DNA of 64,000 nt. It comes from an uncultured Acidobacteriaceae bacterium. Its GTDB lineage: Bacteria; Acidobacteriota; Terriglobia; Terriglobales; Acidobacteriaceae. The stretch's first letter is position 1. Every line of letters begins with the position of its first letter. The notes under the pieces are model-generated. The model was not told the DNA's origin and did not search any database. It saw only the letters and a list, made by a program, of their open reading frames with translations. Positions 3,238 to 22,975 of the stretch are shown here, piece by piece. The position numbers were made by a program, and so were the translations under genes. The stretch is taken from assembly GCA_903842065.1 (NCBI GenBank), contig CAIMKZ010000048.1:62001-126000 (forward strand), read 5' to 3'.

Positions 3238-3382
3238 CGGAAATCCCTCATTTTACCTGCTTTCAGATGTAACGTACTGTGAGTCACAGGCAAGCTACAT
3301 CAATTGCCTATCCACGCAACGCCGACCCATCTACACTGGGTTGGTTGGTAGTTGATTCCGGCCGGTTTTGGAGGGTGACAGC

Positions 3383-4969
3383 TTGACGAAATTGAAACTT
3401 GCTATCAAGGCAGGACACCGCCAGGGAAGATTTGCCCTGCTGCGGATTCCGGCACTCGTGGGTCTTTTTGTGACCGCATCCATCTCAGGATTGTGGGCGC
3501 AGACGGCGGACCCATGCCAGAAACTTGCTACATTGACGCTGCCCGACACCTCCATCACGCAGGCGGCCCCGGTTGAGGCTGGAGCGTTCCCTGCGCCGGC
3601 CGGTGGCGAACAGGCAGGCGCCGCTCGCGAAGCCTACAAAAAGCTGCCTGCGTTCTGCCGGGTCGCGGCTACAGTCCGGCCTACCTCGGACTCCGAGATC
3701 AAGATGGAGGTCTGGCTCCCCATCTCCGGCTGGAATGGAAAGCTTCAGGTGGTTGGGAATGGCGGCTGGTCAGGCTCTATCTCCTACCCCGCGATGGCAC
3801 GAGCCTTGGCCGCGGGCTATGCCACCGCCAGCACCAATACCGGTCACGATGGCGGGCGGGCGAGTTTTGTTCCGGGCCATCCGGAGAAGTTTGTCGACTT
3901 TGCATGGCGTGCAGTGCATCTGACCACTGTTCAATCCAAGGCGGTCGTGAAGAGCTATTACGGAAATCCCGCTCACTACTCCTACTGGAATGGGTGCTCC
4001 ACGGGCGGCAGGCAGGGGCTCAAGGAAGCGCAACGATTCCCCGACGACTTTGACGGGCTGATTGTTGGCGACCCGGTGAACAACTGGGTGCATCAGAAGG
4101 CGGCGGACGTGGCTATGTATCAGTTGACGCACGTCAAGCCGGAGAGCTTCATCCCGCTATCGAAGTATCCGATGATTCACAAGGCGGTGATGGATCAATG
4201 CGATGCCATGGATGGAGTGGTGGACGGCGTTCTTGAGAACCCGCGCCTGTGCCATTGGGAGCCGGCATCGATCCAGTGCAAGGGCGAGGATGGGCCGAAT
4301 TGCCTGACCGCGCCGCAGGTGACTGCATTGACCAAGCTCTATGCGCCTACCCGGATTCCCAAGACCGGAGAGATTATCTTCCCGGGGATGGAGCGGGGAA
4401 CGGAGCTGGCAATGGGCGTGCTGATTGGAAACGAGCCGCATCTGACGGCTACCGATCTGTTTACCTATGTCGTCTTCAACGATCCGAACTGGGACCAGAT
4501 GACGTTCAATCTGGACACGGATGTGGCGCTGGCCGACAAGATCGATGCGGTGGTAAGCGTTTCCGCAACCAATCCAGATCTCGGGCCGCTGTTTGAGCAC
4601 AACGGCAAGGTGATCCTGTATCACGGATTCAGCGACCAGATGGTAATGCCGGGCAACAGCATCGACTATTACAACAGCGTAGTCGAGAAGTTGGGCGGGC
4701 TCAGCAAGACAACAAACGCTATTCGTCTGTTTATGGTGCCCGGCATGGGCCACTGCGCGGGCGGCGAGGGCCCCAACCAGTTCGACATGGTGACGGCTCT
4801 GGATCAGTGGGTGGAGAAGGGCAAGGCTCCGGAGCGGATCGTCGCTTCTCGTATTACTGACGGCAAGGTGACACGGACGCGGCCGCTCTGCGTATATCCG
4901 CAGGTAGCCAAATACAAGGGCTCAGGGAGCACCGACGACGAAGCGAACTTCGTGTGCCGGGCCCAGTAA
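3383..4969 (+). CDS. Secreted tannase/feruloyl esterase family hydrolase
   Basis: TTG start chosen at 3383 because GGAGG (3370-3374) sits 8 nt upstream; the ORF track starts 5 codons earlier. A charged N-terminus and hydrophobic segment ending in LWAQ form a signal peptide, so the protein should be periplasmic or extracellular. The mature part carries the tannase-family CS-D-HC signature: GCSTGGR (Cys205-Ser206, the nucleophile and its disulfide partner) and GMGHCAGGEGPN near the C-terminus, with HGFSDQM holding the likely catalytic Asp. Family members cleave ester bonds of gallate or hydroxycinnamate. Length (528 residues) is normal for the family. A second homologue lies at 8695. Exact substrate cannot be read from sequence. 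Confidence 0.88.
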   Translation: MTKLKLAIKAGHRQGRFALLRIPALVGLFVTASISGLWAQTADPCQKLATLTLPDTSITQAAPVEAGAFPAPAGGEQAGAAREAYKKLPAFCRVAATVRPTSDSEIKMEVWLPISGWNGKLQVVGNGGWSGSISYPAMARALAAGYATASTNTGHDGGRASFVPGHPEKFVDFAWRAVHLTTVQSKAVVKSYYGNPAHYSYWNGCSTGGRQGLKEAQRFPDDFDGLIVGDPVNNWVHQKAADVAMYQLTHVKPESFIPLSKYPMIHKAVMDQCDAMDGVVDGVLENPRLCHWEPASIQCKGEDGPNCLTAPQVTALTKLYAPTRIPKTGEIIFPGMERGTELAMGVLIGNEPHLTATDLFTYVVFNDPNWDQMTFNLDTDVALADKIDAVVSVSATNPDLGPLFEHNGKVILYHGFSDQMVMPGNSIDYYNSVVEKLGGLSKTTNAIRLFMVPGMGHCAGGEGPNQFDMVTALDQWVEKGKAPERIVASRITDGKVTRTRPLCVYPQVAKYKGSGSTDDEANFVCRAQ

Positions 4970-8694: not shown

Positions 8695-10383
8695 ATGAAA
8701 CCTACTTTTCTGTTGAGCCTTGCAGCCGCCGCTGCGGCTATTGTCTTCCCGGTGAACGCACTTGTTGCCCAGCAAGCCGCGGGAGGCAAGTGTGAGAGCA
8801 TGGCCCAGTTCCATGCGCCGAATGTGACCATCTCGAGTTCAGTAGCGGTTACAGCGCCGCTCAAGGTCGGCAATGGCCCGATGGTGGTGACGATATCGAA
8901 GCCGTTTTGCCGGGTAAACGGGTTTCTGACGCCGACGAGCGATTCGCATATCGGCTTTGAGCTCTGGCTGCCTGAAGCTGCGGCGTGGAATCACAAGTTC
9001 GAGGCGGTGGGCAACGGTGGCTTTGCCGGCAGCCTGAACCTGCGCGCCATGCAGCCGGGCTTCGAGCGCGGATACGCCACGATGGCGACCGATCTGGGGC
9101 ATCTGGGCCAGGGCGTCGAGGACATCACCTGGGCGCTCAATCACCCGGAGAAATTTATCGACTATTCGTATCGCGCGGCGCACCTGACGACCGAGGTGTC
9201 GAAGCAGATTATCGCGGCCTACTACGGAACGACCGCGGCGCACTCGTATTATTCAGGATGCTCGGCCGGCGGGATTCAGGGCATCACCGAACTGCTGCGC
9301 TATCCGAAGGACTACGACGGCTACATTGTCGGCGACGGAACGCCGGACCATATGGGTCAGGAGATTGGCGCGTTCTGGAATACGATCGCCGCCTCAGGCC
9401 TGATGAATGCGGCCGACGCTATCCAGCCGGCGCAGATTTCGATGCTGCACGACGCGATTCTGAAGCAGTGCGCGGGCAAAGACGGCGGACTGGCGACTGA
9501 TGCCTTTCTCACTGAGCCTGAGCTCTGCAAGTTCGACACGAAGACGCTTGCCTGCAAGCCGGGGCAGGATGCGGCTGCGTGCCTCACGCCGGGGCAGATC
9601 GCCAATGTGGACAAGATCTTCAAGGGTGGGCCGATTGATCCGGTTACGCACAAGCAGTTTCTTGCGCCGGTTTCGGTGGGCGGCGAGGCGATCTGGGACC
9701 GCTACATCAGCGGCAAGAAGAATCCGGTGGGCTTCGAGCGGCCGTGGGCGGGCTTTATGGCCTACGTTGTCGAGAGCGACGCGGATTATCTGAGCCAGCA
9801 GAAGTATCTGACCTTCAACTTCGGCACCGATCTGGCCGCCGCCCGCAACCTGAAGTTGAGCGGGCAGACGCTGGACGCGGTCTTCAATACACAAAGCCGC
9901 GATCTGGAGGCCTTCAAGGCCGCCGGTGGGAAGGTGATTCAGTACCACGGGTGGGACGACTCGAACATTCCGCCGCTTGAGGCTGTGAACCTGTTCAATG
10001 AGGTTGTGGCCGATCAGGCCAGGCACCACAAGATCACCCCCCAGCAGGCACAGGAGGCGACCGAGAAGTTCTACCGCCTCTTCATGGTGCCGGGCATGGG
10101 GCACTGCTCGGGCGGCGAGGGCCCGAACGTCTTTGGGCAGACCGGCGGAAGCGGCCTGAAGGCCGAACCCGAGTATGACACGCTGCTTGCTCTGGAAGCA
10201 TGGGTTGAGAAGGGAACTGCTCCGGAGCAGTTCATCGGTTCCCACGTGGACCAGAAGACGAAGACCACAACGATGACTCGGCCTCTGTGCGTGTATCCCA
10301 AGGTGGCGATTTACAAGGGCAGCGGCGATCCAAACGATGCCGCGAGCTTCACCTGCGGGAAGGCGTCGGCGGCAAAGCACTAG
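8695..10383 (+). CDS. Secreted tannase/feruloyl esterase family hydrolase (second copy)
   Basis: 562 residues; ATG start, with a signal peptide (LLSLAAAAAAIVFPVNALVAQQ). The tannase CS-D-HC signature is complete: GCSAGGIQG (Cys189-Ser190), HGWDDSNIPP with the likely Asp, and GMGHCSGGEGPNVFG with the His-Cys pair. It resembles the product at 3383 but is clearly diverged and about 30 residues longer, with an insertion before the last motif. Role: ester hydrolysis of phenolic or similar esters outside the cytoplasm. It stands alone between a promoter-like region and a strong hairpin, so it is probably its own transcription unit. Confidence 0.88.
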   Translation: MKPTFLLSLAAAAAAIVFPVNALVAQQAAGGKCESMAQFHAPNVTISSSVAVTAPLKVGNGPMVVTISKPFCRVNGFLTPTSDSHIGFELWLPEAAAWNHKFEAVGNGGFAGSLNLRAMQPGFERGYATMATDLGHLGQGVEDITWALNHPEKFIDYSYRAAHLTTEVSKQIIAAYYGTTAAHSYYSGCSAGGIQGITELLRYPKDYDGYIVGDGTPDHMGQEIGAFWNTIAASGLMNAADAIQPAQISMLHDAILKQCAGKDGGLATDAFLTEPELCKFDTKTLACKPGQDAAACLTPGQIANVDKIFKGGPIDPVTHKQFLAPVSVGGEAIWDRYISGKKNPVGFERPWAGFMAYVVESDADYLSQQKYLTFNFGTDLAAARNLKLSGQTLDAVFNTQSRDLEAFKAAGGKVIQYHGWDDSNIPPLEAVNLFNEVVADQARHHKITPQQAQEATEKFYRLFMVPGMGHCSGGEGPNVFGQTGGSGLKAEPEYDTLLALEAWVEKGTAPEQFIGSHVDQKTKTTTMTRPLCVYPKVAIYKGSGDPNDAASFTCGKASAAKH

Positions 10384-10645: not shown

Positions 10646-11857
10646 ATGTCTATCAATGAAGCTGCATCTTTCCGCAACGGACTCCAGCGGCGGGACTTCC
10701 TCAAGCTGGGTGTGGCGGCCACAGCCGCCGGAATCGCCGCGCCACAGGCGTCGGCCGCCGCTCCTCCGGCCAGCCTGGCGGGCGAGAACAGCTACGCAGC
10801 CAAGCTGACCGCCGCGAGCGTAATGCCGTCGAATGTTCCGCAGCGCCCGGGCCCGCCGATTTCGATCGATGTCCACTGCCATTGGGCGCCGGAAGTGTAT
10901 ATGAAGGCGAAGGCCGATCTGGGTCGCCCGGACTTTATCAGCCCCACGAATCACGATCTGGACGCGCGGGCCAAGTGGATGGACGCGCATGGGGAAAAGA
11001 TGCAGGTGCTTACGCTGGGCGGCTTCATGCCCTGGCAGTGGGTGACGCCGGAGCAGGGAGAGCATATCGCGCAGATCACCAACGATGCGGCGATGGAAGC
11101 GCACCTGTCTCATCCCGATCGTTTTCTGTTTGGCATCGAGCTGCCGGTGGGTTATGCCGAGGGTTCGCTGAAGGAGCTGAACCGCGTGGCCGGTAAGAAG
11201 GGCATGGTGGCTGTGCATCTGCCCAACTCGCTGGCCGGGCGCGAGTACCTCTTCGAGGATCGGTTCGCTCCCGTGCTGGCGCGGATTCAGGAACTGGGCC
11301 TGCCCATCCTGATGCATCCTCTGGACGGCGAGCCGAACTGGTATGCCGGGCACAGGCTGAACGATGAGTACTCCGGTGGCTCGCCCGCTGGAGTGGGGTC
11401 GCTGTTTCCCGGACTGACGAACTCTATTGGCGAGACGTTTGAGCAGGCAACCACGGTTGCCAAGCTCATCGTCAGCGGAACCATGGACAAGTATCCGGAG
11501 TTGCAGATCGTTATCAACCACGCGGGCGGAGCGTTTCCGTATGTCGTGGGCAGAATGGATCGCAGCGGCGGCAAGCTGAAGCAGCCCGTCCACGCCTACA
11601 TCCGCCGGTTCTACTACGACAACCTGGCCTGGTATCCGCTTTCGCTGAAGTACCTGATCGACCTGGTCGGGTCAGACCGCGTGGTGGTGGGAACCGACAA
11701 CATGGGCGCTACGACCGGAGCGCAGAACGCTGCCGGAGCCGCACCGGCAGGCGGTCCCGTACCGGGGCCACATTCCGTCCTCGATCAACTCGACCTTTCG
11801 GCAGAAGACCGCGACCTGATCCTGCGAGGGAATCTGAATGCGCTCTTCCATCTGTAA
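10646..11857 (+). CDS. Tat-exported ACMSD-type amidohydrolase/decarboxylase (copy 1)
   Basis: 403 residues. The N-terminus carries a twin-arginine signal (RRDFLKLGV followed by an Ala-rich segment). The body is an amidohydrolase-2 TIM barrel with the full ACMSD metal set: IDVHCHW (HxH on strand 1), LMHPLDGEP, INHAGGAFPYVVGR and GTDNMG with the final Asp. Relatives decarboxylate ring-derived acids such as aminocarboxymuconate semialdehyde or gamma-resorcylate, or hydrolyse C-C or lactone bonds; the sequence does not settle the substrate. Export of this family is unusual. A second Tat-exported paralogue at 16667 shares motifs such as GGFMPWQW and LPNSLAGREYLFE. First gene of a close series of same-strand genes. 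Confidence 0.85.
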   Translation: MSINEAASFRNGLQRRDFLKLGVAATAAGIAAPQASAAAPPASLAGENSYAAKLTAASVMPSNVPQRPGPPISIDVHCHWAPEVYMKAKADLGRPDFISPTNHDLDARAKWMDAHGEKMQVLTLGGFMPWQWVTPEQGEHIAQITNDAAMEAHLSHPDRFLFGIELPVGYAEGSLKELNRVAGKKGMVAVHLPNSLAGREYLFEDRFAPVLARIQELGLPILMHPLDGEPNWYAGHRLNDEYSGGSPAGVGSLFPGLTNSIGETFEQATTVAKLIVSGTMDKYPELQIVINHAGGAFPYVVGRMDRSGGKLKQPVHAYIRRFYYDNLAWYPLSLKYLIDLVGSDRVVVGTDNMGATTGAQNAAGAAPAGGPVPGPHSVLDQLDLSAEDRDLILRGNLNALFHL

Positions 11858-11917
11858 ATAGCAACCCAACAGTAACGGGGGAGACCGCACACTTCGCCCC
11901 AACTCAAGGAGTTTCGA

Positions 11918-12562
11918 ATGCAAAAAGCAGTATTCGCTGTTCTTCTTCTCTCCGGCGCGCTCGCTGTCGCGCAGGGTCCGGCGGCACGCTCGGGCCAAAT
12001 TAGCCCCGGAACCGCCGGCGCAGGCACGCACGGCGACAAGCTCTTCACGGTCGCACAGATGCAAGAGATTCTGGCCAAGGGACCGGTGAAGAACGGCCAG
12101 CCCGCCGGCCTGAGCACGCGCCTGTTTGGCACCAACACTTATAGCTGCGCGTTTATCCGCATCAGCGAAGCCGACCAGCCGCACAGCCACGGCGAGTGGA
12201 GCGAGGTCCTCGTCATTACGCAGGGCACCGGCACCATTGTTACCGGCGGCACTATGAAGGGGCCGTGGACCTCGGGCAGCGCCGTACATCAGACGCTGTT
12301 TGTGGACGCCAGTGGAAATAAGACTACAGGCGGGCAGCAGCTTGGACCTGTGGTTCACCAGGGCGATCCGCCGCCGGAGGCCGACGCTTCGGGAACTTCG
12401 ATTGAAAGCGGCAACGCGTGGGAAGTAAAGCCCGGCGATCTCGTGCTGATTCCCGCCGGCACACCGCACCAGTGGACGAAGCTGAGCGGGCCGGTTGTGT
12501 ATCTCGATATCAAGTTCCCCAAGGCGACCGAGAAGGCAGCCGCAAAGCCGGCCAGCGAATAA
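11918..12562 (+). CDS. Secreted cupin-domain protein
   Basis: 214 residues with a Sec signal peptide (AVFAVLLLSGALAVAQG) and an RBS (AAGGAG) before the ATG. A cupin barrel is visible: QPHSHGEWSEVLVITQGTGT (first cupin motif with two His and a Glu) and KPGDLVLIPAGTPHQW (second motif with the closing His). The metal set looks complete. Cupins include dioxygenases, isomerases and binding proteins, so the reaction is open. It sits 60 nt after the amidohydrolase and before the PrpD-type gene in the same operon-like series, which suggests a step in the same extracytoplasmic pathway. Confidence 0.78.
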   Translation: MQKAVFAVLLLSGALAVAQGPAARSGQISPGTAGAGTHGDKLFTVAQMQEILAKGPVKNGQPAGLSTRLFGTNTYSCAFIRISEADQPHSHGEWSEVLVITQGTGTIVTGGTMKGPWTSGSAVHQTLFVDASGNKTTGGQQLGPVVHQGDPPPEADASGTSIESGNAWEVKPGDLVLIPAGTPHQWTKLSGPVVYLDIKFPKATEKAAAKPASE

Positions 12563-12659
12563 ATGCGAACGGCGATCGCTCGCATCAATCAACAACGAGA
12601 TCGAAGCTCCTATCCCGCATGAAACGCGGGATGGGAGCACGCAAAGGGGACTTTTCGGC

Positions 12660-14123
12660 ATGGTCATAAAGAACTCATTTACACGGCGCAGCCTGCTAAG
12701 TAATTCAAGTTATCTTCTTGCCGCTTCTGCGTTGCCGCGATTTGCGCGCGGTCAGGCGATTACGCCGATGATGCAGCGGCTCAGCACTTATATGGCAGAA
12801 GCCAAGGACAAGGCACTGCCGGAAGAAGTGGCGGAGAAGGCCAAGCAGCATATTCTCGACACCTTCGCGGCAATGGTTTCCGGAGCGACGCTGGCTCCAG
12901 GCGCGGCTGCGTTCAAATTTGCCCGCGATTATGGTGCGAGCGGAAAGCCCTACTCGACGGTTGTGGCCTCGAATATGGTTCTCGATCCCATCAACGCGGC
13001 GTTGATCAACGGTCAGTTGGCGCACTCCGACGAGACCGACGACTCGCACGCGCCTTCGCAGTCGCATCCCGGTTGCGGGGTTGTTCCGGCGGCGTACGCG
13101 GCAGCCGAGCGGTTCGCTGTATCGGGCACGCACTTTCTACGCGCGGTTGCGCTGGGCTACGACGTGGGTACGCGGGTGACGATGACACTCGGCGCAGAGC
13201 CTTACGAGAACGAGAGCCACCGCTCGACGCACATGATCTCGCCCTTGTTCGGAGCGGCGGCCGCGGCGGCTTGCGCTGCCTCGCTCACTGTGCAGCAGAT
13301 GCGCTGGGTTCTGAACTACGCAGCCGAGCAGGCCGGCGGAATCGCGCTGTGGAACCGCGACCCCGACCACATCGAGAAGGGCTTTGACTTTGCAGGTGGG
13401 CCGGCGCGCGACGGCGTGGCCTCCGCCATGTACGTTTACTCCGGCTGGACCGGGCTCGACGATGTTTTCACCGGGCCGCACAACTTCTTTCTCGCCTTCA
13501 ACCCACATGCCGATCCCAACGGGTTGATCGACAAGCTGGGCAGCGAGTTTCAGGTTGCGCGTACTGACATCAAGCGCTGGACCATCGGCATGCCGATCCA
13601 AGCGCCCATCGACGCCATGGAGTTTATTCGCCGCGAGAACTCGTTCACGCCGGCCGATGTGAAGTCGATCGCGGTGCGCATCGCCCCGCAAGAAGGCGCG
13701 ATCGTCGACAATCGTGCATTGCCCGACATCTGCATGCAGCATCTGCTTGCGGTCATGCTGCTCGACAAGACCATCACCTTCAAGACCGCGCACGATGCCG
13801 CGCGCATGAAGGACCCTGCGGTTCTGGAGCAGCGCGCCAAGGTGAGCATCGTCAACGACGAAGAGCTGGGCAAACTGATGCCGCATCGCCAGGCCACGGT
13901 CATTCTTACGTTGAACGACGGGCGCAGCTTCTCAAAACACGTGGACTCGGTTCGGGGCACGGTATCGAACCCCATGACCAGCGACGAAGTGAAGACAAAA
14001 GCACGCGATCTGATGGCGCCCACGCTGGGCGCGGAGAAGACCACGAAGTTTATCGACGGCATCTTCGCAATTGAGAAGCTTGGCGATATCCGCGAGCTGC
14101 GAGGCCTGCTGCAAACGCCGTAA
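12660..14123 (+). CDS. Exported MmgE/PrpD family protein
   Basis: ATG at 12660 chosen: AGGGGA lies 9 nt upstream, and the longer ORF would overlap the cupin gene by 68 nt. 487 residues. The N-terminus has a twin-arginine-like signal (RRSLLSN and a hydrophobic stretch). The rest is MmgE/PrpD: QHILDTFAAMVSGA, INGQLAHSDETDDSHAPSQSHPG and VALGYDVGTRV. Characterised members are 2-methylcitrate dehydratases, iminodisuccinate epimerase and cis-aconitate decarboxylase, all cytosolic as far as I know. The signal peptide is therefore unexpected. A dehydratase or decarboxylase role on an acid intermediate is inferred. Confidence 0.8.
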   Translation: MVIKNSFTRRSLLSNSSYLLAASALPRFARGQAITPMMQRLSTYMAEAKDKALPEEVAEKAKQHILDTFAAMVSGATLAPGAAAFKFARDYGASGKPYSTVVASNMVLDPINAALINGQLAHSDETDDSHAPSQSHPGCGVVPAAYAAAERFAVSGTHFLRAVALGYDVGTRVTMTLGAEPYENESHRSTHMISPLFGAAAAAACAASLTVQQMRWVLNYAAEQAGGIALWNRDPDHIEKGFDFAGGPARDGVASAMYVYSGWTGLDDVFTGPHNFFLAFNPHADPNGLIDKLGSEFQVARTDIKRWTIGMPIQAPIDAMEFIRRENSFTPADVKSIAVRIAPQEGAIVDNRALPDICMQHLLAVMLLDKTITFKTAHDAARMKDPAVLEQRAKVSIVNDEELGKLMPHRQATVILTLNDGRSFSKHVDSVRGTVSNPMTSDEVKTKARDLMAPTLGAEKTTKFIDGIFAIEKLGDIRELRGLLQTP

Positions 14124-14149
14124 TGAGGTACACCCGGGAGGGAAAGCAG

Positions 14150-14677
14150 ATGCTTGTTCGACCCATGAAAGTAGTCGCCGCGAGAGCCGTTTTCGCAATA
14201 CTGGTATGCGCGGCAGGGCAGGTCGCGATTTCAGCACAGAATCTCGACACGCACGGGATGCCGTCTCAACAGCAGCTATCAACGCCGGAATATCTGAAGA
14301 CGGTTCTGATCAAGGTGACGAAGCGCGAGTATGACATCAAGAAGCTGGTGTCTGCGCCGTCGCTTTCTCCCGAGGCGAAGGTGGGGCAGGCGCTGTGGCA
14401 GCAACGCTGCGGATACTGCCACGACGGCATGGGGCAGCCCACTTACAAGACCATGGGCAGCTGGATCGACTCCGACATGGTGAAGGATCTGGGCGCCGAC
14501 ACCGTGAAAGCTTTCATCTCAAACGGCGTGGACCGGATGCCTGCGTTCAAGTATGGACTCGACGACAAGCAGATCAACGCCATCGTCGAATTTCTCAAGA
14601 CGGTTTCTCCCAAGCTGAAGCCCACGGCGGCACAGCTGGCGGGCAAGCTGGATGGCCCCGGCAGCAACGCGGAATAA
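14150..14677 (+). CDS. Secreted monoheme c-type cytochrome
   Basis: ATG 14150 chosen because GGGAGG is 7 nt upstream; an alternative ATG at 14123 overlaps the stop codon of the previous gene by one base. 175 residues, with a signal peptide ending near ISAQ. One heme site, CGYCH, follows VGQALWQQR, and RMPAF supplies the likely axial methionine, as in class I cytochromes. Position directly behind the PrpD-type gene and before another heme-binding protein suggests it takes electrons from an oxidation in the periplasm. Confidence 0.85.
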   Translation: MLVRPMKVVAARAVFAILVCAAGQVAISAQNLDTHGMPSQQQLSTPEYLKTVLIKVTKREYDIKKLVSAPSLSPEAKVGQALWQQRCGYCHDGMGQPTYKTMGSWIDSDMVKDLGADTVKAFISNGVDRMPAFKYGLDDKQINAIVEFLKTVSPKLKPTAAQLAGKLDGPGSNAE

Positions 14678-14708
14678 CGCATCGATCCACGGCATAAATG
14701 AGGCAATG

Positions 14709-16601
14709 ATGAAGAAGTTATCTATCGCGATCGTTCTGGCGTTGGTGGTGATTGGGCTTGCGGCCTGGACCGCTGTGTACACTCGCTCAGCTGAGGCTGC
14801 CAGCGAGCACCCTGCCCTCATAGGCGCAATTCACAGCGCCGGTGGAAAGGCGATGGGCGGCGTGGCCGTATCGGCGCGCTCATCGGAGCAGACATTTAAC
14901 ACAACGGTATACACGGATGAGACCGGCGAGTATGTGTTTCCCGCTCTGGCCAGTGGCAACTACAAGATCTGGGCGCAGGCGGTGGGTTTCTCGATCGACC
15001 GCGCCGAGGTGAAGCTGGATGGAGCCGCGACGGCTCGCCAGAACTTCTCGCTCAAGCCGATCGACAACTTCGAGATGCAGCTCACCGGCTCGGAGTGGCT
15101 CGCGGCCTTGCCCGAGGACACGGCTCAACACAAGAAGATGAAGCAGGTTCTCTACGTCTCCTGCACGGGCTGCCACGGACTCGATCTGGTTCTGAACAAC
15201 CGCTTCGACGAAGAGGGCTGGCGGTTGCAGGTGAAGTCGATGGAGTCGGCCGACTACCGCGGCTATCGCGGCGCAGACGACATGCCGGCCGGCAACCTCG
15301 GCTGGGAGGGTCAGGTCATCCGGCATCATCGCGACGAGCTTGCAAAGTATCTGGCCGAGATGCGCGGCCCCGGCCCCTCACCGATGAAGCTGAAGCCCTT
15401 CCCGCGGCCTACCGGCGAAGCTGCCCGCGCGGTGATCACCGAGTACGATCTGCCTAACGAAATTATTCCGACCGAGATGGGACGCAACTACGGCGACGAC
15501 TGGACGCTTGGCCCCTCTACCGGCATGCACGGGCAGGTCGGCATCCACGATGTGGTCGCAGACAACCTGGGCAAAGCCTGGATTACGTCGAGCCGCGAGT
15601 CCTTTGAGACCAACCGCCAGCTAATCAAGCTCGATCCCAAGACCGGAGCGATGACGCTGATCAATGTTCGGAACGCCAACGGTGGTGCGATGTACTACGA
15701 GCAGATCACGCAGCCCGATCCCAAGGGATATATATGGATGCACGGCGGCGGTAACTTTGTGCGCATCGATCCGGCCACCGATACGCTCACGGCTTATCCC
15801 ATTCCGCGCGTCTATGGCGGGACGATGAATTCGATCGATCCTGACTCCAAGGGCCGGGTGTTTGCCAACGGCCACTCGGGCACGGTCGAGTTCGATCCAG
15901 CTGGGCAGGATGCAACCGGCATCATTTATCCCGGCTGGCACTACTACCAGCAAATTACGCCGGGCAACAGCACCACCTACGGAATCTCTGTCGATTCGGA
16001 AGACAATCCGTGGTGGTCTGAGAGCTATTCGAGCAAGGTGGCTGTGCGCAACATGAAGACCGGCAAGGTGACCGAGTTCGACATGCGCGATCCTGGTTAC
16101 GAGGCTCGCAAGGCGCTCTTCAAGTCCGACTTAGCCTTCTACGAGTCAATCGGCGGAGAGATCTGGTCCGGCACTTCGGGCACTCCGCTGCCGTATGGCG
16201 AGTTCCCGCGCAGGCTGGCGGCGGACAAGACCGGCGACACAGTGTGGATTCCGAACTGGGCGCAGACGAATATCGCCGAGATCAACATCCACACGATGAA
16301 GGTGACGTATCACGAGTTGCCGCTGCAAATGCATCCTTATAAGACCATCGTGGACAAGTTCCACAATGTCTATACGGACACGCAGGTGGGCGACGGGCTG
16401 TACAAGTTCACTCCTTCAACTCAGAAGTGGACTTACTTCCAACTGCCGACGCATGGATGCAGTTCACGGCACATGAGCTTCGATGACAACCTGAACGAGG
16501 CATGGATTCCCTGCGATCAGGCCGACACCGTCGATCGTGTGCAGTTCCGCACCGCCGAGCAGGTGCGTGCGCTGAAGGCAGCGGCAATTCCAGCGAAATA
16601 G
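14709..16601 (+). CDS. Heme-binding carboxypeptidase-regulatory plus Vgb-like beta-propeller protein
   Basis: Tandem ATGs at 14706 and 14709; the second has better spacing to GAGG. About 630 residues. A signal anchor (KKLSIAIVLALVVIGLAAW) leads to a carboxypeptidase-regulatory Ig-like domain (about residues 35-105, AIHSAGGKAMGGVAVSAR to NYKIWAQAVGFS). Then comes a single heme site, CTGCH, in a short cytochrome-like segment. The rest (about 215-630) is a propeller with the streptogramin-lyase style repeats (KAWITSSRES, GYIWMHGGGN, NEAWIPCDQADTVDR). Lyase activity is not implied, since such propellers often only bind. The combination with a heme site suggests an electron-accepting sensor or dehydrogenase-like subunit in the periplasm. 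Confidence 0.75.
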   Translation: MKKLSIAIVLALVVIGLAAWTAVYTRSAEAASEHPALIGAIHSAGGKAMGGVAVSARSSEQTFNTTVYTDETGEYVFPALASGNYKIWAQAVGFSIDRAEVKLDGAATARQNFSLKPIDNFEMQLTGSEWLAALPEDTAQHKKMKQVLYVSCTGCHGLDLVLNNRFDEEGWRLQVKSMESADYRGYRGADDMPAGNLGWEGQVIRHHRDELAKYLAEMRGPGPSPMKLKPFPRPTGEAARAVITEYDLPNEIIPTEMGRNYGDDWTLGPSTGMHGQVGIHDVVADNLGKAWITSSRESFETNRQLIKLDPKTGAMTLINVRNANGGAMYYEQITQPDPKGYIWMHGGGNFVRIDPATDTLTAYPIPRVYGGTMNSIDPDSKGRVFANGHSGTVEFDPAGQDATGIIYPGWHYYQQITPGNSTTYGISVDSEDNPWWSESYSSKVAVRNMKTGKVTEFDMRDPGYEARKALFKSDLAFYESIGGEIWSGTSGTPLPYGEFPRRLAADKTGDTVWIPNWAQTNIAEINIHTMKVTYHELPLQMHPYKTIVDKFHNVYTDTQVGDGLYKFTPSTQKWTYFQLPTHGCSSRHMSFDDNLNEAWIPCDQADTVDRVQFRTAEQVRALKAAAIPAK

Positions 16602-16666
16602 AGAACGAGGCTGGCGATGTATTCTCAGCTCATCGAGTTGAACATGCATCGCCGGGGAGACTAGCA

Positions 16667-17860
16667 ATGACGAAAGAAACGGGATATTTGAACCGTCGGG
16701 ACTTTTTTAAGGTTGGAGCAGCGGTAACGGCGGCCACCGCAATCACCGGCCCCGAGGCAAAGGCGCAGACGTGGGCGCAGAGCTATGCGGGCGAGAACAG
16801 CTATGCCGGAAAACCAATACCGCAGGGCACGCCGAAGCCCTGGAATGTGCCGCAGATTCCAGGCCCGCCCATTTCGATCGACGTGCACACGCACTGGTCG
16901 CCGCAGGGCTATCTGGATCTGAAGGCCAAATGGGGGAAGCCCGACAATCTGACGCCTTCCAACTACGACATGGAGAAACGCATCCAGTGGATGACGGCGA
17001 ACGGCGAGAAGATGCAGGTTCTCACGCTGGGCGGATTCATGCCCTGGCAGTGGACTTCTCCCGAGCAGGCGCTCCAGGTGGCGCAGGTTGTCAATGATGC
17101 GGCCATCGAGGTTCACGCAAAATATCCAGATCACTTTCTTGCTGGAATCGAGCTGCCGGTCAACGCGCCCGATCTGGCGCTCAAGGAACTGGATCGCGTG
17201 GCCGGCAAGCCGGGTATGGTGGGCGTGCATCTGCCTAACTCGCTGGCGGGGCGCGAGTATCTGTTTGAGCCCGCGTTCGCGCCGGTGCTGGCGCGCTGCG
17301 ACGAGCAGAAGATACCGCTGCTCATCCATCCGCTGGACGGCGAGCCGAACTGGTACGCCGGACACCGGCTTGCCGATCCCTACTCGGGACCGAATCAGAC
17401 CGGGTTGTTTCCCGGGCTGACCAATACGGCAGGCGAGACGTTTGAACAGGCGACGACGATTTCGAAGCTGATCGTCAGCGGCACGCTCGACAAGTATCCC
17501 AACCTGGACATCGTTGCGGCGCACTCCGGTGGAGCGTTCGCCTTTATCGCCTCGCGCATCGACTGGCGCGGCGGCGACAACGGCCTCAAGCACCCCTTCC
17601 TGAGCTATGTGCGCCGGTTCTACTTCGATGCGCAGACGTATTATCCGCTGGCGCTGAAGTTCCTGATCGAGTTTGCCGGGGCCGACCGCATCGTGGTCGG
17701 AACGGACAACATGGGTCCGCAGGCCAACACCAACGCCAACAACACGAACGCCAACCGGCCGCAGGGAGGACCGCACTCCCTCATCGACCAGGTAGGGCTT
17801 TCGGCAGGAGATCGCGATCTGATTCTGAGAGGGAACCTCACGCGTCTCTTCAAGCTGTAG
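16667..17860 (+). CDS. Tat-exported ACMSD-type amidohydrolase/decarboxylase (copy 2)
   Basis: ATG at 16667 chosen because GGGGAGA lies 6 nt upstream; the longer ORF overlaps the previous gene. 397 residues. Twin-arginine signal NRRDFFKVGAAV. Metal ligands as in copy 1: IDVHTHW, LIHPLDGEP, AAHSGGAFAFIASR and GTDNMG. The two copies share long stretches (GEKMQVLTLGGFMPWQW, LPNSLAGREYLFE), so they arose by duplication and may act on related substrates or form a mixed oligomer. A strong terminator hairpin follows, ending this operon segment. Confidence 0.85.
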   Translation: MTKETGYLNRRDFFKVGAAVTAATAITGPEAKAQTWAQSYAGENSYAGKPIPQGTPKPWNVPQIPGPPISIDVHTHWSPQGYLDLKAKWGKPDNLTPSNYDMEKRIQWMTANGEKMQVLTLGGFMPWQWTSPEQALQVAQVVNDAAIEVHAKYPDHFLAGIELPVNAPDLALKELDRVAGKPGMVGVHLPNSLAGREYLFEPAFAPVLARCDEQKIPLLIHPLDGEPNWYAGHRLADPYSGPNQTGLFPGLTNTAGETFEQATTISKLIVSGTLDKYPNLDIVAAHSGGAFAFIASRIDWRGGDNGLKHPFLSYVRRFYFDAQTYYPLALKFLIEFAGADRIVVGTDNMGPQANTNANNTNANRPQGGPHSLIDQVGLSAGDRDLILRGNLTRLFKL

Positions 17861-17871
17861 TGCAATGTAAG

Positions 17872-17913
17872 GGCGCGGGGCAGGCGGGTCTAACGGGCCG
17901 CCTGCCCCGCGCC
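17872..17913 (+). terminator. Perfect 16-bp GC-rich hairpin
   Basis: GGCGCGGGGCAGGCGG (17872-17887) pairs fully with CCGCCTGCCCCGCGCC (17898-17913), with a 10-nt loop. It lies 11 nt after the stop codon of the second amidohydrolase and is followed only by ATTTGC. Probable terminator or strong 3'-end protection within the gene series. Confidence 0.75.
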
Positions 17914-18081
17914 ATTTGCATTTACAGGTAACTTCCATGACGATGGTCACCGGAGCCAGTGGCTCCTGCGGATAAAGTGTTATGAAGCAACCAATCGCGG
18001 AGACAGCCGCGTTCTCCGGCAGGCGGATGAATCGCGGAAGCGGCTCGCGGAATTTATCCGGCCGATCACGGGAGTTCAACC

Positions 18082-19368
18082 ATGAAGTGGACACGCAGAA
18101 CACTGTTGCAACGGGGATTGACCGCAACGGCAGCGGTGGCCGCATTGCCGCAGTTTGCACAAGAGGCAACGGGCCAAAGTCCGGCGGCGCAAACTGCTCC
18201 GGGAGCTGTCACGGTAGATACGATTCCTGCCGCTGCGCGCATTGCCCTCACGGATCTGATCGACCATGGCGCGCATCTTCATTCGGGGCAGAAGGTGCTT
18301 CTTGTGGCCTACCTCGACGGGCTCTATGGCGGCGACAATCTTGTCGATCGTCAGGCCATGCTCTGGCTGCAAAGGTCGATTGAGGAACGCGGAAACAAGG
18401 TCGAGGTTCTGTGGGTCGATGAGATCACGCGCGTCAACGAGTGGAAGTTTCCCACCTACGTGCGCGCCGCTATGGACCGCGCCGACGTGGTCTTTAACCA
18501 CTCCTTCGATCTGACCATGGAGGAAGTGCTGGAGTTCCGCAGCTACATTGAGCACGAGCGCAAGGGCCTGCCCATGGTGCGCAACTTTGCCACAACAGTT
18601 CCCTTGCTGTGCACTACCTGGGCGCAGACGCCGCAGGAACTGGTGAGCGAGATTAGGTACCAGGCATCGACAAGAATCGTCTCAGGGCTCAAGTGGGAGC
18701 TGACCGACCCTAATGGCACACATCTTGAGGGAACGGTGAAGCCCGCGCAGAACGTGACTAACGCGGCGCATAGCTACGCGGTCCGCCGCGAAGACTCGAA
18801 CAGCTACTATCCCTGGCCGGAGTGGGTATGCCCGCCCATCGTGCTGGCCGGAACCAACGGAACTTTTGTCTTCGATCGTATGTTGAGCTGGTGGTCGCGC
18901 TACATCGGCATCTCGCCTTATTTCAAAAGTCCGATCACGCTCACCATTCGAGACAATCGTATAGAGAAGATCGAAGGCGGCGCTGAGGCCGACGCACTGC
19001 GGCGCTTCATGGCTTTCCTGCACAGCAAACTGGGCGACAGCACGTATGTCTTCGACACGTTGCATTTCGGAGTGCATCCGCAGGCCCGAGTTGCACCGCA
19101 GCAGTGCCCCAGCGTCCTCTACCGGCGCATGATCGAGCACTCCGACATTCACAACCTGCACGTGCACGTAGGCTCGGGCGTCGCTACAAAGGAATATCCT
19201 TACTGGCCGCACATCACCGGAGATCTTCGCCAGCCGACTTTCCGCATCGGCGACCGGCTGGTGCACGAAAACGGCCGGCTCACCGCGCTCGACGATCCTG
19301 AGGTGAAGGCCATTGCGGCAAAGTATCCCGGCCACCCTGGGCTCGATCCGGAACCGTATCAGGGGTGA
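18082..19368 (+). CDS. Tat-exported NicX/M29-like metalloprotein
   Basis: 428 residues; ATG with GGGAG upstream. The N-terminus (KWTRRTLLQRGLTATAAV) is a twin-arginine signal. The C-terminal half resembles 2,5-dihydroxypyridine 5,6-dioxygenase (NicX) and M29 aminopeptidases: GTFVFDRMLSWW, SPITLTIRDNRIEKIEGGAEAD, DTLHFGVHPQAR. In NicX the Fe(II) ligands are two His and an Asp (H-x-D in the last motif). Here the first His is in TLHFG, and the last motif reads LHVHVG, with His where Asp is expected. A ring-cleaving dioxygenase or peptidase-like role is possible, but the ligand change makes this uncertain. Start of a new segment after the terminator. Confidence 0.65.
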   Translation: MKWTRRTLLQRGLTATAAVAALPQFAQEATGQSPAAQTAPGAVTVDTIPAAARIALTDLIDHGAHLHSGQKVLLVAYLDGLYGGDNLVDRQAMLWLQRSIEERGNKVEVLWVDEITRVNEWKFPTYVRAAMDRADVVFNHSFDLTMEEVLEFRSYIEHERKGLPMVRNFATTVPLLCTTWAQTPQELVSEIRYQASTRIVSGLKWELTDPNGTHLEGTVKPAQNVTNAAHSYAVRREDSNSYYPWPEWVCPPIVLAGTNGTFVFDRMLSWWSRYIGISPYFKSPITLTIRDNRIEKIEGGAEADALRRFMAFLHSKLGDSTYVFDTLHFGVHPQARVAPQQCPSVLYRRMIEHSDIHNLHVHVGSGVATKEYPYWPHITGDLRQPTFRIGDRLVHENGRLTALDDPEVKAIAAKYPGHPGLDPEPYQG

Positions 19369-19494
19369 TTTTGAGTTGAACGGTGCGGCTACATATCATG
19401 AATACGACTCATTCAACTACTGAGAAAGCGAAGCAAAGCCCTTCGCGGCTTTTGCCGGCGTTTTCCCGTCTATAAGGACAGAGGAAGATACGCA

Positions 19495-20394
19495 ATGATT
19501 ATCGATACCCACCAGCATTTCTGGAACATCGAACGGCCCTGGGCCAAAGGCGTGCAGGACTACAGGATTCTGGCCGAGCCCGAGGGCATCACGGGCACAA
19601 TTCTGCGCCTGGAAGAAAACGAGACGGCTCTTGAGATTGCGAACCAGAATCCCTTTGTCGTCGGCGTTTGCGGCGAAGTCATTCCGGGGCCGGAGTTCGA
19701 GGCCAAGCTGAATCACTACGCGGTGGACCCGCTCTATCGCGGCATTTGCCTGTTTGGGCCCGTGCTGGCTGATGTGGGCAAAGACCCGAAGATGTTTCTC
19801 GGCTGCATGGAGCAGTTGGCGGCAAAGCAACTGCCGCTCGAACTGCTGCGCGCGCTTCCCGGATTCTGGGGCGGGCCGAAGGCGATGCAGAAGTTTCAGG
19901 GGACTAAAGAATCCGTCGAAGGGCTGATCGCAATCGCCGAGGCCGTTCCCGATATGCCCATCGTGGTTCAGCATATGGGCGGGCTGCCGATCGACGGCAA
20001 GCCACTTACGCCGGAGTGGGAAGAGAAGTTCCAGATGCTGGCCAAGTATCCGCAGATCGTGATCAAGGTCTCGGGCCTGATGCGCGGCGACGCCACGCGG
20101 GCGCAGAACGAACGCTCCAGCGAGTCACTGGGCTTCTACCGGCCGGTGCTGGACGCTGTGTGGCGGATCTTCGGCGAGGACCGGCTGATGTACGGCAGCA
20201 ACTGGCCGGTCAGCGAGCACGAAGGCGATTTTATTTCTCAAGGCATGAGGCTGGTGCGGCGCTACTTCTCAGAGAAGGGCCAGGTGGCCCTGGAGAAGTA
20301 CTACTGGAAGAACTCGCTCCACGTCTACAAGTGGAAGCCGCGTATGCTGGCACAGACCTACGAAGGCAGCCCGGCGCCCATCACCGCGGCATAA
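19495..20394 (+). CDS. Cytosolic amidohydrolase-2 family hydrolase (COG3618-like)
   Basis: 299 residues, no signal peptide; starts directly with IIDTHQHFWN, the strand-1 HxH motif. VQHMGGLPIDG gives another likely metal His. The last motif reads MYGSNWPVSE, where most lactonases of this group have GSDWP. Relatives hydrolyse 2-pyrone-4,6-dicarboxylate or sugar lactones. Located after the exported enzymes and before cytosolic small proteins, so it probably handles an imported lactone or ring-derived acid. Confidence 0.75.
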   Translation: MIIDTHQHFWNIERPWAKGVQDYRILAEPEGITGTILRLEENETALEIANQNPFVVGVCGEVIPGPEFEAKLNHYAVDPLYRGICLFGPVLADVGKDPKMFLGCMEQLAAKQLPLELLRALPGFWGGPKAMQKFQGTKESVEGLIAIAEAVPDMPIVVQHMGGLPIDGKPLTPEWEEKFQMLAKYPQIVIKVSGLMRGDATRAQNERSSESLGFYRPVLDAVWRIFGEDRLMYGSNWPVSEHEGDFISQGMRLVRRYFSEKGQVALEKYYWKNSLHVYKWKPRMLAQTYEGSPAPITAA

Positions 20395-20429
20395 CTGCCG
20401 CCGATCATTGATTGAAAGGGACGAAGACT

Positions 20430-20834
20430 ATGGCAGACGAAAGCACAGAGCAGAGAAAAGAGAAGTTGCTCGCGGATATGGCAGCCGAGAGGGGATTCCT
20501 GCCCAAGGAGTGGCAGTGGGTCGCAGATCAGGACCTGGATTATCTCGAGGCTTATAACAATCTCTGGCGTCAGGCATCGAACGAAGGCAAGTATCTATCT
20601 GTCAAGACGCGCGAGCTGATCGTCATCGGGATTCTTGCCTTCCGCGGCTCGGAAGGCGCGGTGTACTCGCACTGCCAGCGCGCGCTCAAGTTCGGCGCCA
20701 CCATTCCGGAGTTGCTGGAAGCCTTCGAGACGATGGTCGTGACCGGCGGCGCTCCGACGTTTGCCCTCGGGCTGAAGGTGCTGATGCGCATTCTTAAAGA
20801 GCAGGAAGAGCAGAACGAGCAGGCGAAGAAGTAG
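20430..20834 (+). CDS. Carboxymuconolactone decarboxylase-like protein
   Basis: ATG 20430 preferred (AAAGGGA upstream) over the TTG six codons earlier. 134 residues, all-helical. VKTRELIVIGILAF, YSHCQRALKFGATIPELLEAFE and VTGGAPTFALGLKVL follow the CMD/AhpD-like fold. The CxxC pair of AhpD is absent: only one Cys, next to the His, is present. It is therefore not likely to be a peroxidase of the AhpD kind; a ring-acid decarboxylase or structural role is more plausible. It lies 35 nt after the amidohydrolase gene. Confidence 0.75.
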   Translation: MADESTEQRKEKLLADMAAERGFLPKEWQWVADQDLDYLEAYNNLWRQASNEGKYLSVKTRELIVIGILAFRGSEGAVYSHCQRALKFGATIPELLEAFETMVVTGGAPTFALGLKVLMRILKEQEEQNEQAKK

Positions 20835-20863
20835 CCGGGCAGCGGTTGCGAGAGGAGATTCAT

Positions 20864-21181
20864 ATGGCGGAACAGGATGAACAAAAGCCCGGATTCATCG
20901 GCCCCGGACACTATCCGGTGAAGGTGGAAATCATCAGTCAGAAGGGCCACTGCCATCTGGGCCACAAGGTCGGCGACACATGGACCGTGAGTCACGTAAC
21001 ACCCGGCGGCATGTGCATTGGGGCGTTCCAGGCGATGGCGCTCCAGTTGAAGATGTTGGAGTTTGGAGGCGGGTTCCCGTGGGCGCCGGACAAGGACTCG
21101 CACGAGTGCGCCTGCCCGGATGGCAACAATCCCATCATCTTCAAATTAACGAGGCTCCGCGAGCAACCTCCGAAAGAGTAG
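20864..21181 (+). CDS. TIGR04076-type small protein
   Basis: ATG 20864 chosen for AGGAGA upstream; 105 residues. KGHCHLGHKVGDTWTV, GGMCIGAFQAM, HECACPDGNNPIIFKLTRL match the small Cys-rich family I know as TIGR04076 (function not established). Cysteines with a His could hold a metal. It sits between the CMD-like and the S15-type hydrolase genes, 29 and 15 nt away, so it is cotranscribed with the catabolic genes. Confidence 0.7.
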   Translation: MAEQDEQKPGFIGPGHYPVKVEIISQKGHCHLGHKVGDTWTVSHVTPGGMCIGAFQAMALQLKMLEFGGGFPWAPDKDSHECACPDGNNPIIFKLTRLREQPPKE

Positions 21182-21196
21182 GCAGGGAGAACGGGT

Positions 21197-22975
21197 ATGG
21201 CAGAGTCCACGGCGCAGGCTCCGCAGATCATCTGGAAGAAAGAGACGATCGGCGGTGAAGAGATCGAGGTCGCTTACCGCGAGGCCATGCGGCCCGAGCC
21301 GCTGGGCACCGCTGCCAGCCGTGCGCCGAAGGGCAAGCTGCCAACCTACGTAGTTGACGGCTGGGGCGACTTTCCTCCGCTCAATCCCCGCACGTACGAG
21401 ATCGCGCCCGGAATTATCTGCGAGCAGGACGTGGCCATTCCCATGCGGGATGGCATCATCACTTACTGCGATATCTATCGTCCGGCAAACCAGACCAACA
21501 TCCCGGTCATCATTGCGTGGAGCTACTACGGCAAGCGGCCGAGTGCGGACTCGCTGCACATCGAGTGGCAGACGCGCGGCGTGCCTTACGGCTCGCACTC
21601 GAACCACGCCAAGTTCGAAGGGCCCGACCCCGAGTACTGGTGCCACAAGGGCTACGCCATCGCCAACTACGACATGCGCGGAGTGAACAACTCCGAGGGC
21701 GATCTCTGTTTCTGGGGCAAGTACGAGCGCAGCGACGGCTACGACCTGATCGAGTGGCTCGCCGAGCAGGAATGGTGTAACGGCAAGGTGGGCATGGCTG
21801 GCAACTCCGCGCTGGCCATGGCGCAGTGGCGGATCGCCGCCGAGCAGCCGCCGCATCTGGCCGCTATCGCGCCGTGGGAAGGTGCGGCCGACGCCTATCG
21901 CGAACTCTACAACATGGGCGGGTTCACCGAGTACGGATTCCGCAAGTTTATGTGGAAGGCCTTCAAGGGCAAGAACCTTGTCGAAGATCCCTTCGCGATG
22001 ATTGAGCGCTATCCCCTGTTGAACGCCTACTGGCAGAGCAAAATCCCCGACTTCGAGAAGATCGAGGTTCCCGCATACATTACGACCGGATGGAATCACT
22101 TCCATAATCGCGGCGCGGTGAATGGATTCCGGCTCATCGGGTCAAAGCAAAAGTGGCTGCGCACGCACCGGGACTTCGAGTGGCCCGATCAGTACTCGCG
22201 GGAGGGGATCGACGACCTGACGCGATTCTTCGACCGCTATCTCAAAGGCATTCGCAACGGCTGGGAGTCAACGCCGCGTGTGCGCATCGAAGTTATGGAC
22301 GCCTACGACTTCGACGATCAAACCTCGCGGGCCGAAACCGATTTTCCGCTGGCGCGAACGGAGTATCGCAAGCTTTATCTCGATGCCGCGAAAAATGCGC
22401 TGAGCCAAGTTCCTGTCGAAGTTGAATCGCAGTGCCGATACGATGGCAACACAGGCAAAGCCACGTTCGACATCACATTCAACGAGGAGACAGAGCTCAG
22501 CGGCTATATGAAGCTGCATCTGTGGGTCGAGGCCGACGGCAACGACGAGATGGATCTGTTTGTGGCGATTCAGAAGCTTGACGCGAACGGCAAATGGCTG
22601 CCGACGAACGCACTGGGCAAGTCCCACCCCGGCACTCCCGGCAAGCTGCGCGTGTCGCTGCGCGAGACCGATCCGGAGAAGTCGACCGAGTTCCAGCCTT
22701 ATTACCCGTACAACAATCCGCAGAAACTCAAGCCGGGAGAGATCGTTCCTGTCGATATTGAAATTTGGCCGTCGAGCCGGACCTGGCACGCCGGCGAGCA
22801 GTTGCGCGTGGAAGTCATGGGGCACTACGAACGCATCGACTGGTTTGAGCCTTTTGCCTGGAATACCGACAACAAGGGGACGCACATCATCCACTCGGGC
22901 GGCCGGTACGATTCGCATCTACTGGTGCCGTATATTCCGCCGAAGTATGTTGCGGGCAACCGAGTTTATCGCTAA
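21197..22975 (+). CDS. CocE/NonD family (S15-like) hydrolase
   Basis: 592 residues without a signal peptide. An N-terminal alpha/beta-hydrolase domain shows VAIPMRDGIITYCDIYRP, YAIANYDMRGVNNSEG and GKVGMAGNSALAMAQW (the nucleophile Ser in GNSAL). The C-terminal jelly-roll typical of X-Pro dipeptidyl-peptidase-like hydrolases follows (LPLHLWVEADGNDEMDLFV-type region at about 430-570, and RTWHAGEQLRVEV). Family members cleave esters or amides, for example cocaine esterase and glutaryl acylases. As the last gene of the series, it probably hydrolyses an ester or amide taken into the cytoplasm. A convergent terminator follows. Confidence 0.82.
   Translation: MAESTAQAPQIIWKKETIGGEEIEVAYREAMRPEPLGTAASRAPKGKLPTYVVDGWGDFPPLNPRTYEIAPGIICEQDVAIPMRDGIITYCDIYRPANQTNIPVIIAWSYYGKRPSADSLHIEWQTRGVPYGSHSNHAKFEGPDPEYWCHKGYAIANYDMRGVNNSEGDLCFWGKYERSDGYDLIEWLAEQEWCNGKVGMAGNSALAMAQWRIAAEQPPHLAAIAPWEGAADAYRELYNMGGFTEYGFRKFMWKAFKGKNLVEDPFAMIERYPLLNAYWQSKIPDFEKIEVPAYITTGWNHFHNRGAVNGFRLIGSKQKWLRTHRDFEWPDQYSREGIDDLTRFFDRYLKGIRNGWESTPRVRIEVMDAYDFDDQTSRAETDFPLARTEYRKLYLDAAKNALSQVPVEVESQCRYDGNTGKATFDITFNEETELSGYMKLHLWVEADGNDEMDLFVAIQKLDANGKWLPTNALGKSHPGTPGKLRVSLRETDPEKSTEFQPYYPYNNPQKLKPGEIVPVDIEIWPSSRTWHAGEQLRVEVMGHYERIDWFEPFAWNTDNKGTHIIHSGGRYDSHLLVPYIPPKYVAGNRVYR

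What the first reader, a model, noticed from the sequence alone, without database searches (positions are those of the whole stretch)
14709..16601. Fusion of a carboxypeptidase-regulatory domain, a CXXCH heme site and a Vgb-like propeller
A single CTGCH site sits between a regulatory Ig-like domain and a streptogramin-lyase-type propeller, directly after a free cytochrome c gene. This order suggests a periplasmic protein that passes electrons to the cytochrome, a role not assigned to Vgb-like propellers.
Basis: partly seen in the sequence, partly recalled or inferred. Interest (0 to 1): 0.52.

Follow-up and report, generated by a model that had tools for sequence, protein, structure and literature searches.

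The report
Secreted heme-propeller protein with cytochrome partner
A soil acidobacterium carries a gene for an exported protein that joins a small heme-binding domain to a seven-bladed propeller, and relatives in several bacterial phyla keep the same heme site and the same neighbouring cytochrome gene (sometimes fused into one protein), which points to an undescribed electron-transfer pair that probably serves breakdown of plant compounds.

Summary
Window 14709-16601 encodes a 630-residue exported protein: signal peptide, carboxypeptidase-regulatory Ig-like domain (39-116), a small helical domain with CTGCH (152-156), and a seven-bladed Vgb-like propeller. A cytochrome c of the same type lies beside the gene, or is fused to it, in 60 of the 64 relatives where this could be seen, against 3 of 677 non-adjacent genes. 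Fusions occur at either end of the protein, and at least six gains or losses of fusion are forced by well-supported tree branches. The propeller has the Vgb fold but fails Pfam's Vgb cut-off and lacks the Vgb catalytic histidine at the aligned blade; it has its own conserved central ring (His280, Tyr424, Arg501, Tyr544, Arg587). Best reading: a periplasmic two-heme electron-transfer module, here inside a tannase/decarboxylase-type catabolic cluster. Heme binding, electron direction and substrate are inferred. No description was found in the literature searched.

The parts
14150..14677 (+). Free class I-type cytochrome c (CGYCH, distal-Met motif RMPAFKY), signal peptide; start more likely ATG 14150 (preceded by GGGAGG) than 14123
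   Evidence: Pfam Cytochrome_CBB3 50.3 bits and Cytochrom_C 27.0 bits, both above cut-off; sequence; CXXCH and distal Met invariant in 32 aligned partners
14709..16601 (+). Heme-propeller protein, 630 aa: signal peptide 1-~31, Ig-like domain 39-116, heme domain ~121-240, seven-bladed propeller ~241-615
14823..15056 (+). Carboxypeptidase-regulatory-like Ig domain (residues 39-116)
   Evidence: Pfam PF13620, 46.8 bits
15162..15176 (+). CTGCH heme-attachment motif (residues 152-156)
   Evidence: sequence; C152, H156 63/63 and C155 62/63 in relatives
15240..15242 (+). Met178, invariant, candidate distal heme ligand (with invariant Trp171)
   Evidence: 63/63 in relatives; helix 168-180 in the model; ligand role is inferred
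15429..16553 (+). Seven-bladed propeller; conserved ring residues H280, Y424, R501, Y544, R587 (331 is His in most relatives, Glu here)
12642..14123 (+). MmgE/PrpD-family protein with a Tat-like signal, directly upstream; also upstream of the module in Novosphingobium rosa
   Evidence: Pfam; 43% identity to the N. rosa neighbour
8695..10383 (+). Tannase/feruloyl esterase family; a second one lies at 3368-4969
   Evidence: Pfam PF07519, E 3e-97 and 5e-115
16667..17860 (+). Amidohydrolase_2 family, Tat signal; closest solved relatives are ACMSD and resorcylate-type decarboxylases
   Evidence: Pfam, PDB phmmer

Best explanation
The gene encodes an exported redox protein whose central domain is a divergent monoheme cytochrome c and whose seven-bladed propeller binds, and may oxidise, a small substrate. 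Electrons would pass from the propeller to its own heme, then to the dedicated cytochrome c encoded next door, and on to the respiratory chain. The pair is a portable unit found in different periplasmic catabolic clusters. In this genome it sits in a co-directional tannase / MmgE-PrpD / amidohydrolase-decarboxylase cluster, so an aromatic or tannin-derived acid is the likeliest substrate. Shown here: domain order, conserved heme motif and candidate distal Met, conserved partner cytochrome with repeated fusions, Vgb-type fold, conserved ring residues. Inferred: heme attachment, electron direction, catalysis by the propeller, substrate.
For: CXXCH, W171 and M178 conserved over 63 relatives at about 30-57% identity to the query. 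Partner cytochrome adjacent or fused in 60 of 64 testable relatives versus 3 of 677 non-adjacent genes. The fused state needs 7 changes on the tree, at least 6 forced by strongly supported branches; cytochrome at the N-terminus in L056, L070, L089, L108, L017, L008 and at the C-terminus in L060, L098. The heme-domain profile matches the partner-cytochrome profile (hhalign probability 89, E 2.3e-6), and Pfam cytochrome c models hit 36 and 28 of 48 members, weakly. Partner cytochromes keep CXXCH and a distal Met. Propeller = Vgb fold with a different, conserved ring at one position of successive blades. Neighbours include tannases, MmgE/PrpD, multicopper oxidase, PQQ dehydrogenases and TonB receptors. 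The genome has cytochrome c assembly proteins.
Against: Foldseek finds no PDB match for the isolated heme-domain model, and Pfam gives no match at all for the window's own heme domain. No known catalytic cofactor is recognised in the propeller. Neighbouring enzymes differ between lineages, so the module may only relay electrons for other enzymes. No relative has been studied, as far as the searched library shows.
Confidence: 0.62

Rival explanations
1. Pure electron relay: the propeller is a docking platform for separate periplasmic oxidoreductases (PQQ dehydrogenase, multicopper oxidase, GMC or other enzymes), and the two hemes only carry electrons from them.
For: Neighbouring oxidoreductases differ between loci: PQQ dehydrogenases in L036, L040, L043, L097; multicopper oxidase in L055; GMC oxidoreductase in L086. 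The cytochrome is the only constant partner.
Against: A conserved central ring (H280, D281, Y424, R501, Y544, R587) suggests a substrate pocket rather than a mere surface. This window shows no recognisable PQQ, flavin or copper oxidoreductase among the neighbours examined.
Confidence: 0.22
2. Vgb-like lyase: the propeller opens a lactone or ester by elimination, and the heme is structural or regulatory.
For: Vgb is the closest solved fold; tannases in the cluster suggest ester and lactone chemistry.
Against: The Pfam Vgb cut-off is not met (21.8 against 50 bits). The Vgb position of H270 (whose H270A form is deposited as catalytically inactive) aligns with an invariant Tyr (Y544), not a His. 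A lyase does not need two co-inherited cytochromes.
Confidence: 0.08
3. Non-redox cytochrome role: as with TfcP and PilY1 in Myxococcus (PMC8833165), the hemes stabilise or sense, and the propeller is an adhesin, receptor or redox sensor.
For: There is a published precedent for a noncanonical cytochrome c supporting a partner protein without electron transport. Regulatory Ig domains of this Pfam family also occur in the TonB-type receptors encoded near several relatives.
Against: The partner cytochrome keeps ordinary CXXCH and distal-Met motifs, unlike the His/Cys ligation of TfcP. Neighbours identified are mostly catabolic enzymes and transport proteins.
Confidence: 0.08

Closest known systems
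Virginiamycin B lyase (Vgb; PDB 2qc5, 2z2n; Pfam PF24684)
   Same: Seven-bladed propeller fold; best PDB match, TM-score 0.84 by target length
   Different: Single-domain, no heme; Mg2+ site in blades 6 and 7 (PMC8916777). Here the Pfam score is below cut-off, the catalytic His is replaced by Tyr at the aligned position, and Ig and heme domains are added
Quinohemoprotein amine dehydrogenase alpha subunit (PDB 1jju, 1jmx; Pfam Dehyd-heme_bind)
   Same: The heme-domain profile picks it among its top weak PDB hits, sharing the C..CH...R...W pattern; from general knowledge it also combines heme and Ig-like domains with a partner seven-bladed propeller
   Different: Di-heme, with propeller and CTQ cofactor on separate subunits; E only 0.005; one heme site here and no gamma subunit found (uninformative control)
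Thiocyanate dehydrogenase with cytochrome c552 (PMC9456337)
   Same: A periplasmic enzyme handing electrons to a dedicated monoheme cytochrome c; a propeller copper enzyme, from general knowledge
   Different: Copper enzyme without its own heme domain; no sequence relation tested
cd1 nitrite reductase NirS
   Same: Cytochrome c domain fused to a propeller in one exported protein (general knowledge; PMC7278500 listed)
   Different: Eight blades and a heme d1 cofactor (general knowledge); no cytochrome d1 Pfam model matches P0001
PQQ-dependent quinohemoprotein dehydrogenases
   Same: Propeller plus cytochrome c domain, electrons passed to a soluble cytochrome (general knowledge); PQQ dehydrogenases are encoded near some relatives
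   Different: No PQQ Pfam model matches P0001; domain order differs

Membership tests
Virginiamycin B lyase | Seven-bladed Vgb-type propeller | tested here: met
   Foldseek best hits 2qc5 and 2z2n; seven blade repeats at 280, 331, 374, 424, 501, 544, 587
Virginiamycin B lyase | Pfam PF24684 gathering score | tested here: not met
   21.8 bits against a cut-off of 50
Virginiamycin B lyase | Catalytic His270 and nearby Glu/Mg2+ residues | tested here: not met
   H270 aligns with invariant Y544; the E268 and E284 positions are not Glu in this protein. Sequence-level alignment; the Glu numbers are from general knowledge; a rotated blade register is not excluded (H280 sits at the same blade position)
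Cytochrome c (class I-like domain) | CXXCH | tested here: met
   Second Cys kept in 62/63 relatives; the exception reads CGGRH (L093). L116 (in that set) and L019 (outside it) have a three-residue spacing
Cytochrome c (class I-like domain) | Conserved distal ligand | tested here: inconclusive
   Met178 is invariant 63/63, but its position relative to heme was not modelled
Cytochrome c (class I-like domain) | Cytochrome c fold / family score | tested here: inconclusive
   hhalign to partner cytochromes probability 89, E 2.3e-6; Pfam cytochrome models hit 36/48 members weakly but not the window's domain; Foldseek none
Cytochrome c (class I-like domain) | Covalent heme | not testable with these tools
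   Needs protein chemistry; assembly genes are present in the genome
Quinohemoprotein amine dehydrogenase | Two CXXCH in the alpha subunit | tested here: not met
   One CXXCH in P0001
Quinohemoprotein amine dehydrogenase | Gamma subunit with CTQ (PF08992) | tested here: inconclusive
   No hit in the genome, but controls rang nowhere either
PQQ quinoprotein dehydrogenase | PQQ propeller profile | tested here: not met
   No PQQ model hits P0001

The most novel reading that the evidence does not exclude
A new class of periplasmic oxidoreductase: a Vgb-fold propeller that oxidises its substrate with no known organic cofactor or with an unrecognised metal held by its conserved His/Tyr/Arg ring, wired through a built-in heme to a dedicated cytochrome c, and exchanged between acidobacteria and proteobacteria as a cassette.
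Probability: 0.3. Interest if true: 0.72.

Novelty: new variant of a known kind. Interest (0 to 1): 0.52.

Why it matters
It turns a set of proteins that domain annotation would call regulatory-domain or Vgb-like proteins into a coherent, testable redox module found in acidobacteria and proteobacteria, and probably in other phyla. It gives Vgb-type propellers a likely role in respiration-linked catabolism, and names a partner and specific residues to test.

Tried and rejected
A single-sequence scan of genome contigs found nothing; the family alignment then found 65 loci. A search of plasmids gave one weak hit. Foldseek with the isolated heme domain gave no meaningful match. A search for the QHNDH gamma subunit was uninformative because controls were silent. 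A conserved enzyme partner other than the cytochrome was sought by clustering neighbours; the next most common families reached only 13 (TctC) and 10 (TonB-type) of the 65 loci. Literature searches found no paper on this architecture. The original Vgb structure paper is not held.

Full report
WHAT IS THERE. At 14709-16601 lies one ORF of 630 residues. It starts with a signal peptide (MKKLSIAIVLALVVIGLAAWTAVYTRSAEAAS), followed by a carboxypeptidase-regulatory Ig-like domain (39-116, above Pfam cut-off), a helical stretch with CTGCH at 152-156, and a propeller. The model is confident (mean pLDDT 82.8, pTM 0.86), and its best PDB matches are the streptogramin/virginiamycin B lyases (TM-score 0.84 by target length). 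Seven blades can be counted from the sequence. The free cytochrome c gene upstream (CGYCH, distal-Met motif RMPAFKY) ends 31 bp before it. The genes from 10646 to 22975 run in one direction with mostly short gaps: amidohydrolase, cupin, MmgE/PrpD, cytochrome c, this protein, amidohydrolase, an unassigned Tat-signal protein, amidohydrolase, CMD-family protein, a short ORF and a CocE/NonD hydrolase.

THE HEME SITE IS CONSERVED. Homologues were collected from whole genomes (15 of 396 sampled genomes of the phylum) and from named genome contigs (65 loci). In an alignment of 63 sequences C152 and H156 are invariant, C155 is kept in 62, and W171 and M178 are invariant, while position 153 takes six different residues and position 154 is also variable. 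The exception (L093) reads CGGRH. Two relatives have a three-residue spacing, CGFGCH in L019 and CSTQCH in L116. The domain is most likely a divergent cytochrome c. Its profile aligns over most of its length with the partner cytochrome profile (E 2.3e-6, probability 89). Pfam cytochrome models match most members weakly, but not the window's own copy. Weak PDB hits are cytochromes c, CcoP and the heme subunit of quinohemoprotein amine dehydrogenase. Foldseek on the isolated domain found nothing, so the fold is supported by sequence rather than by structure search.

THE CYTOCHROME PARTNERSHIP IS REAL. In the 65 named loci a P0002-like gene lies directly upstream on the same strand in 47, directly downstream in one, and is fused in the same ORF in six. 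Four more (L099, L102, L110, L114) have a more divergent CXXCH protein directly upstream, one (L119) has the cytochrome upstream of a frameshifted copy, and in one (L064) it precedes the first of two tandem copies. That is 60 of the 64 loci where the upstream side is held (L101 is cut off). Among 677 non-adjacent genes of the same loci only three are P0002-like. The whole-genome set adds fusions in G270 and G196; the G196 gene is split into two overlapping frames. The cytochrome is at the N-terminus in most fusions and at the C-terminus in L060 and L098. On a quick maximum-likelihood tree the fused state needs seven changes, at least six of them forced by strongly supported branches (the careful search was not finished). 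Repeated fusion in both orders is good evidence that the two products act together.

THE PROPELLER IS NOT A VGB LYASE BY THE TESTS AVAILABLE. The Vgb Pfam model scores 21.8 bits against a cut-off of 50. In the profile alignment to 2z2n the catalytic H270 (its H270A form is deposited as catalytically inactive) aligns with Y544, which is Tyr in all 59 sequences that have the column. The family instead has its own set of residues at the same position of successive blades: H280, H331 in most (Glu here), Y424, R501, Y544 and R587, plus D281 and W265. Except for position 331 these do not vary where the column is filled, at about 30-57% identity to the query, which suggests a shared pocket. Because H280 sits at the same blade position as H270, a rotated register cannot be excluded. 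With two Arg, two Tyr and one or two His, the pocket could suit an anionic, perhaps aromatic, ligand (inference).

CONTEXT AND SPREAD. The module is patchy: 3 of 200 sampled genomes of the window's family (this count includes the window's own) and 1 of 201 in the family of Novosphingobium rosa carry a homologue at the thresholds used. Yet the N. rosa protein is the sister of the window protein on the tree (support 99) at 55-57% identity. N. rosa has MmgE/PrpD, tannase and a multicopper oxidase just upstream of the pair. This looks like a horizontally moved cassette linked to tannin or phenolic-ester use. A tannase is also near a relative in L045. Elsewhere the neighbours are PQQ dehydrogenases, TonB-type receptors, TctC-type binding proteins and dienelactone hydrolases, so the module is not tied to one pathway. 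Some record titles (Bordetella, Chitinophaga, Acidimicrobiia) belong to metagenome bins and should not be trusted; the 'Acidimicrobiia' contig VFZL01000033 has the same length as a contig of G418, which the genome tool places in the window's phylum.

HOW IT MOST LIKELY WORKS. Shown by sequence: export signal, conserved heme motif with an invariant Met and Trp, a nearly constant cytochrome partner with repeated fusions, conserved ring in a Vgb-type propeller. Inferred: heme is attached in the periplasm (assembly proteins are in the genome), the propeller binds the substrate or reductant, electrons hop to the built-in heme and then to the free cytochrome. The main open point is whether the propeller itself oxidises something or only docks other oxidoreductases; I put the two readings at roughly 0.62 and 0.22. 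A non-redox role has a precedent in TfcP/PilY1 (PMC8833165), but the partner cytochromes here have ordinary ligand motifs.

NOVELTY. Propeller-cytochrome electron transfer is a known kind (NirS, quinohemoproteins, thiocyanate dehydrogenase with cytochrome c552, PMC9456337). This domain combination, its dedicated partner and its spread do not appear in the papers searched, a library that lacks most subscription journals. I therefore call it a new variant of a known kind.

Noticed in passing
window 10646-22975: Much of the cluster appears exported: the amidohydrolases at 10646 and 16667 have Tat-signal matches in Pfam, and MmgE/PrpD (12642) and the protein at 18082 begin with Tat-like RR motifs. 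A largely periplasmic catabolic pathway built from normally cytoplasmic enzyme families would be unusual.
   Followed up: partly
window 18082-19368: 428-aa Tat-signal protein with no significant Pfam, NCBIfam or PDB match.
   Followed up: partly
L055:2-8487: Novosphingobium rosa carries a related cassette (MmgE/PrpD, tannase, multicopper oxidase, cytochrome c, heme-propeller, BNR protein), a likely horizontal transfer between phyla.
   Followed up: partly
L019, L116, L093: Odd heme motifs: CGFGCH and CSTQCH (three-residue spacing) and CGGRH (second Cys lost) at the otherwise conserved site.
   Followed up: partly
L009, L020, L029, L030, L032, L033, L060:8195-9934, L098:8213-9946: A second, more distant subfamily with the same domain order and a conserved CXXCH; in L060 and L098 a copy sits directly upstream of the fused form.
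   Followed up: partly
window 16458-16514 (residues 584 and 602): A Cys pair in the last blade, shared with the closest relatives L011 and L013 but absent from most others shown; possible disulfide.
   Followed up: no
L047:9027-11284: In G196 the fused cytochrome-Ig-heme part and the propeller are in two overlapping frames: either a frameshift or a natural split between heme domain and propeller.
   Followed up: no
window 40430-46870: Open reading frame of 2146 aa, not examined.
   Followed up: no
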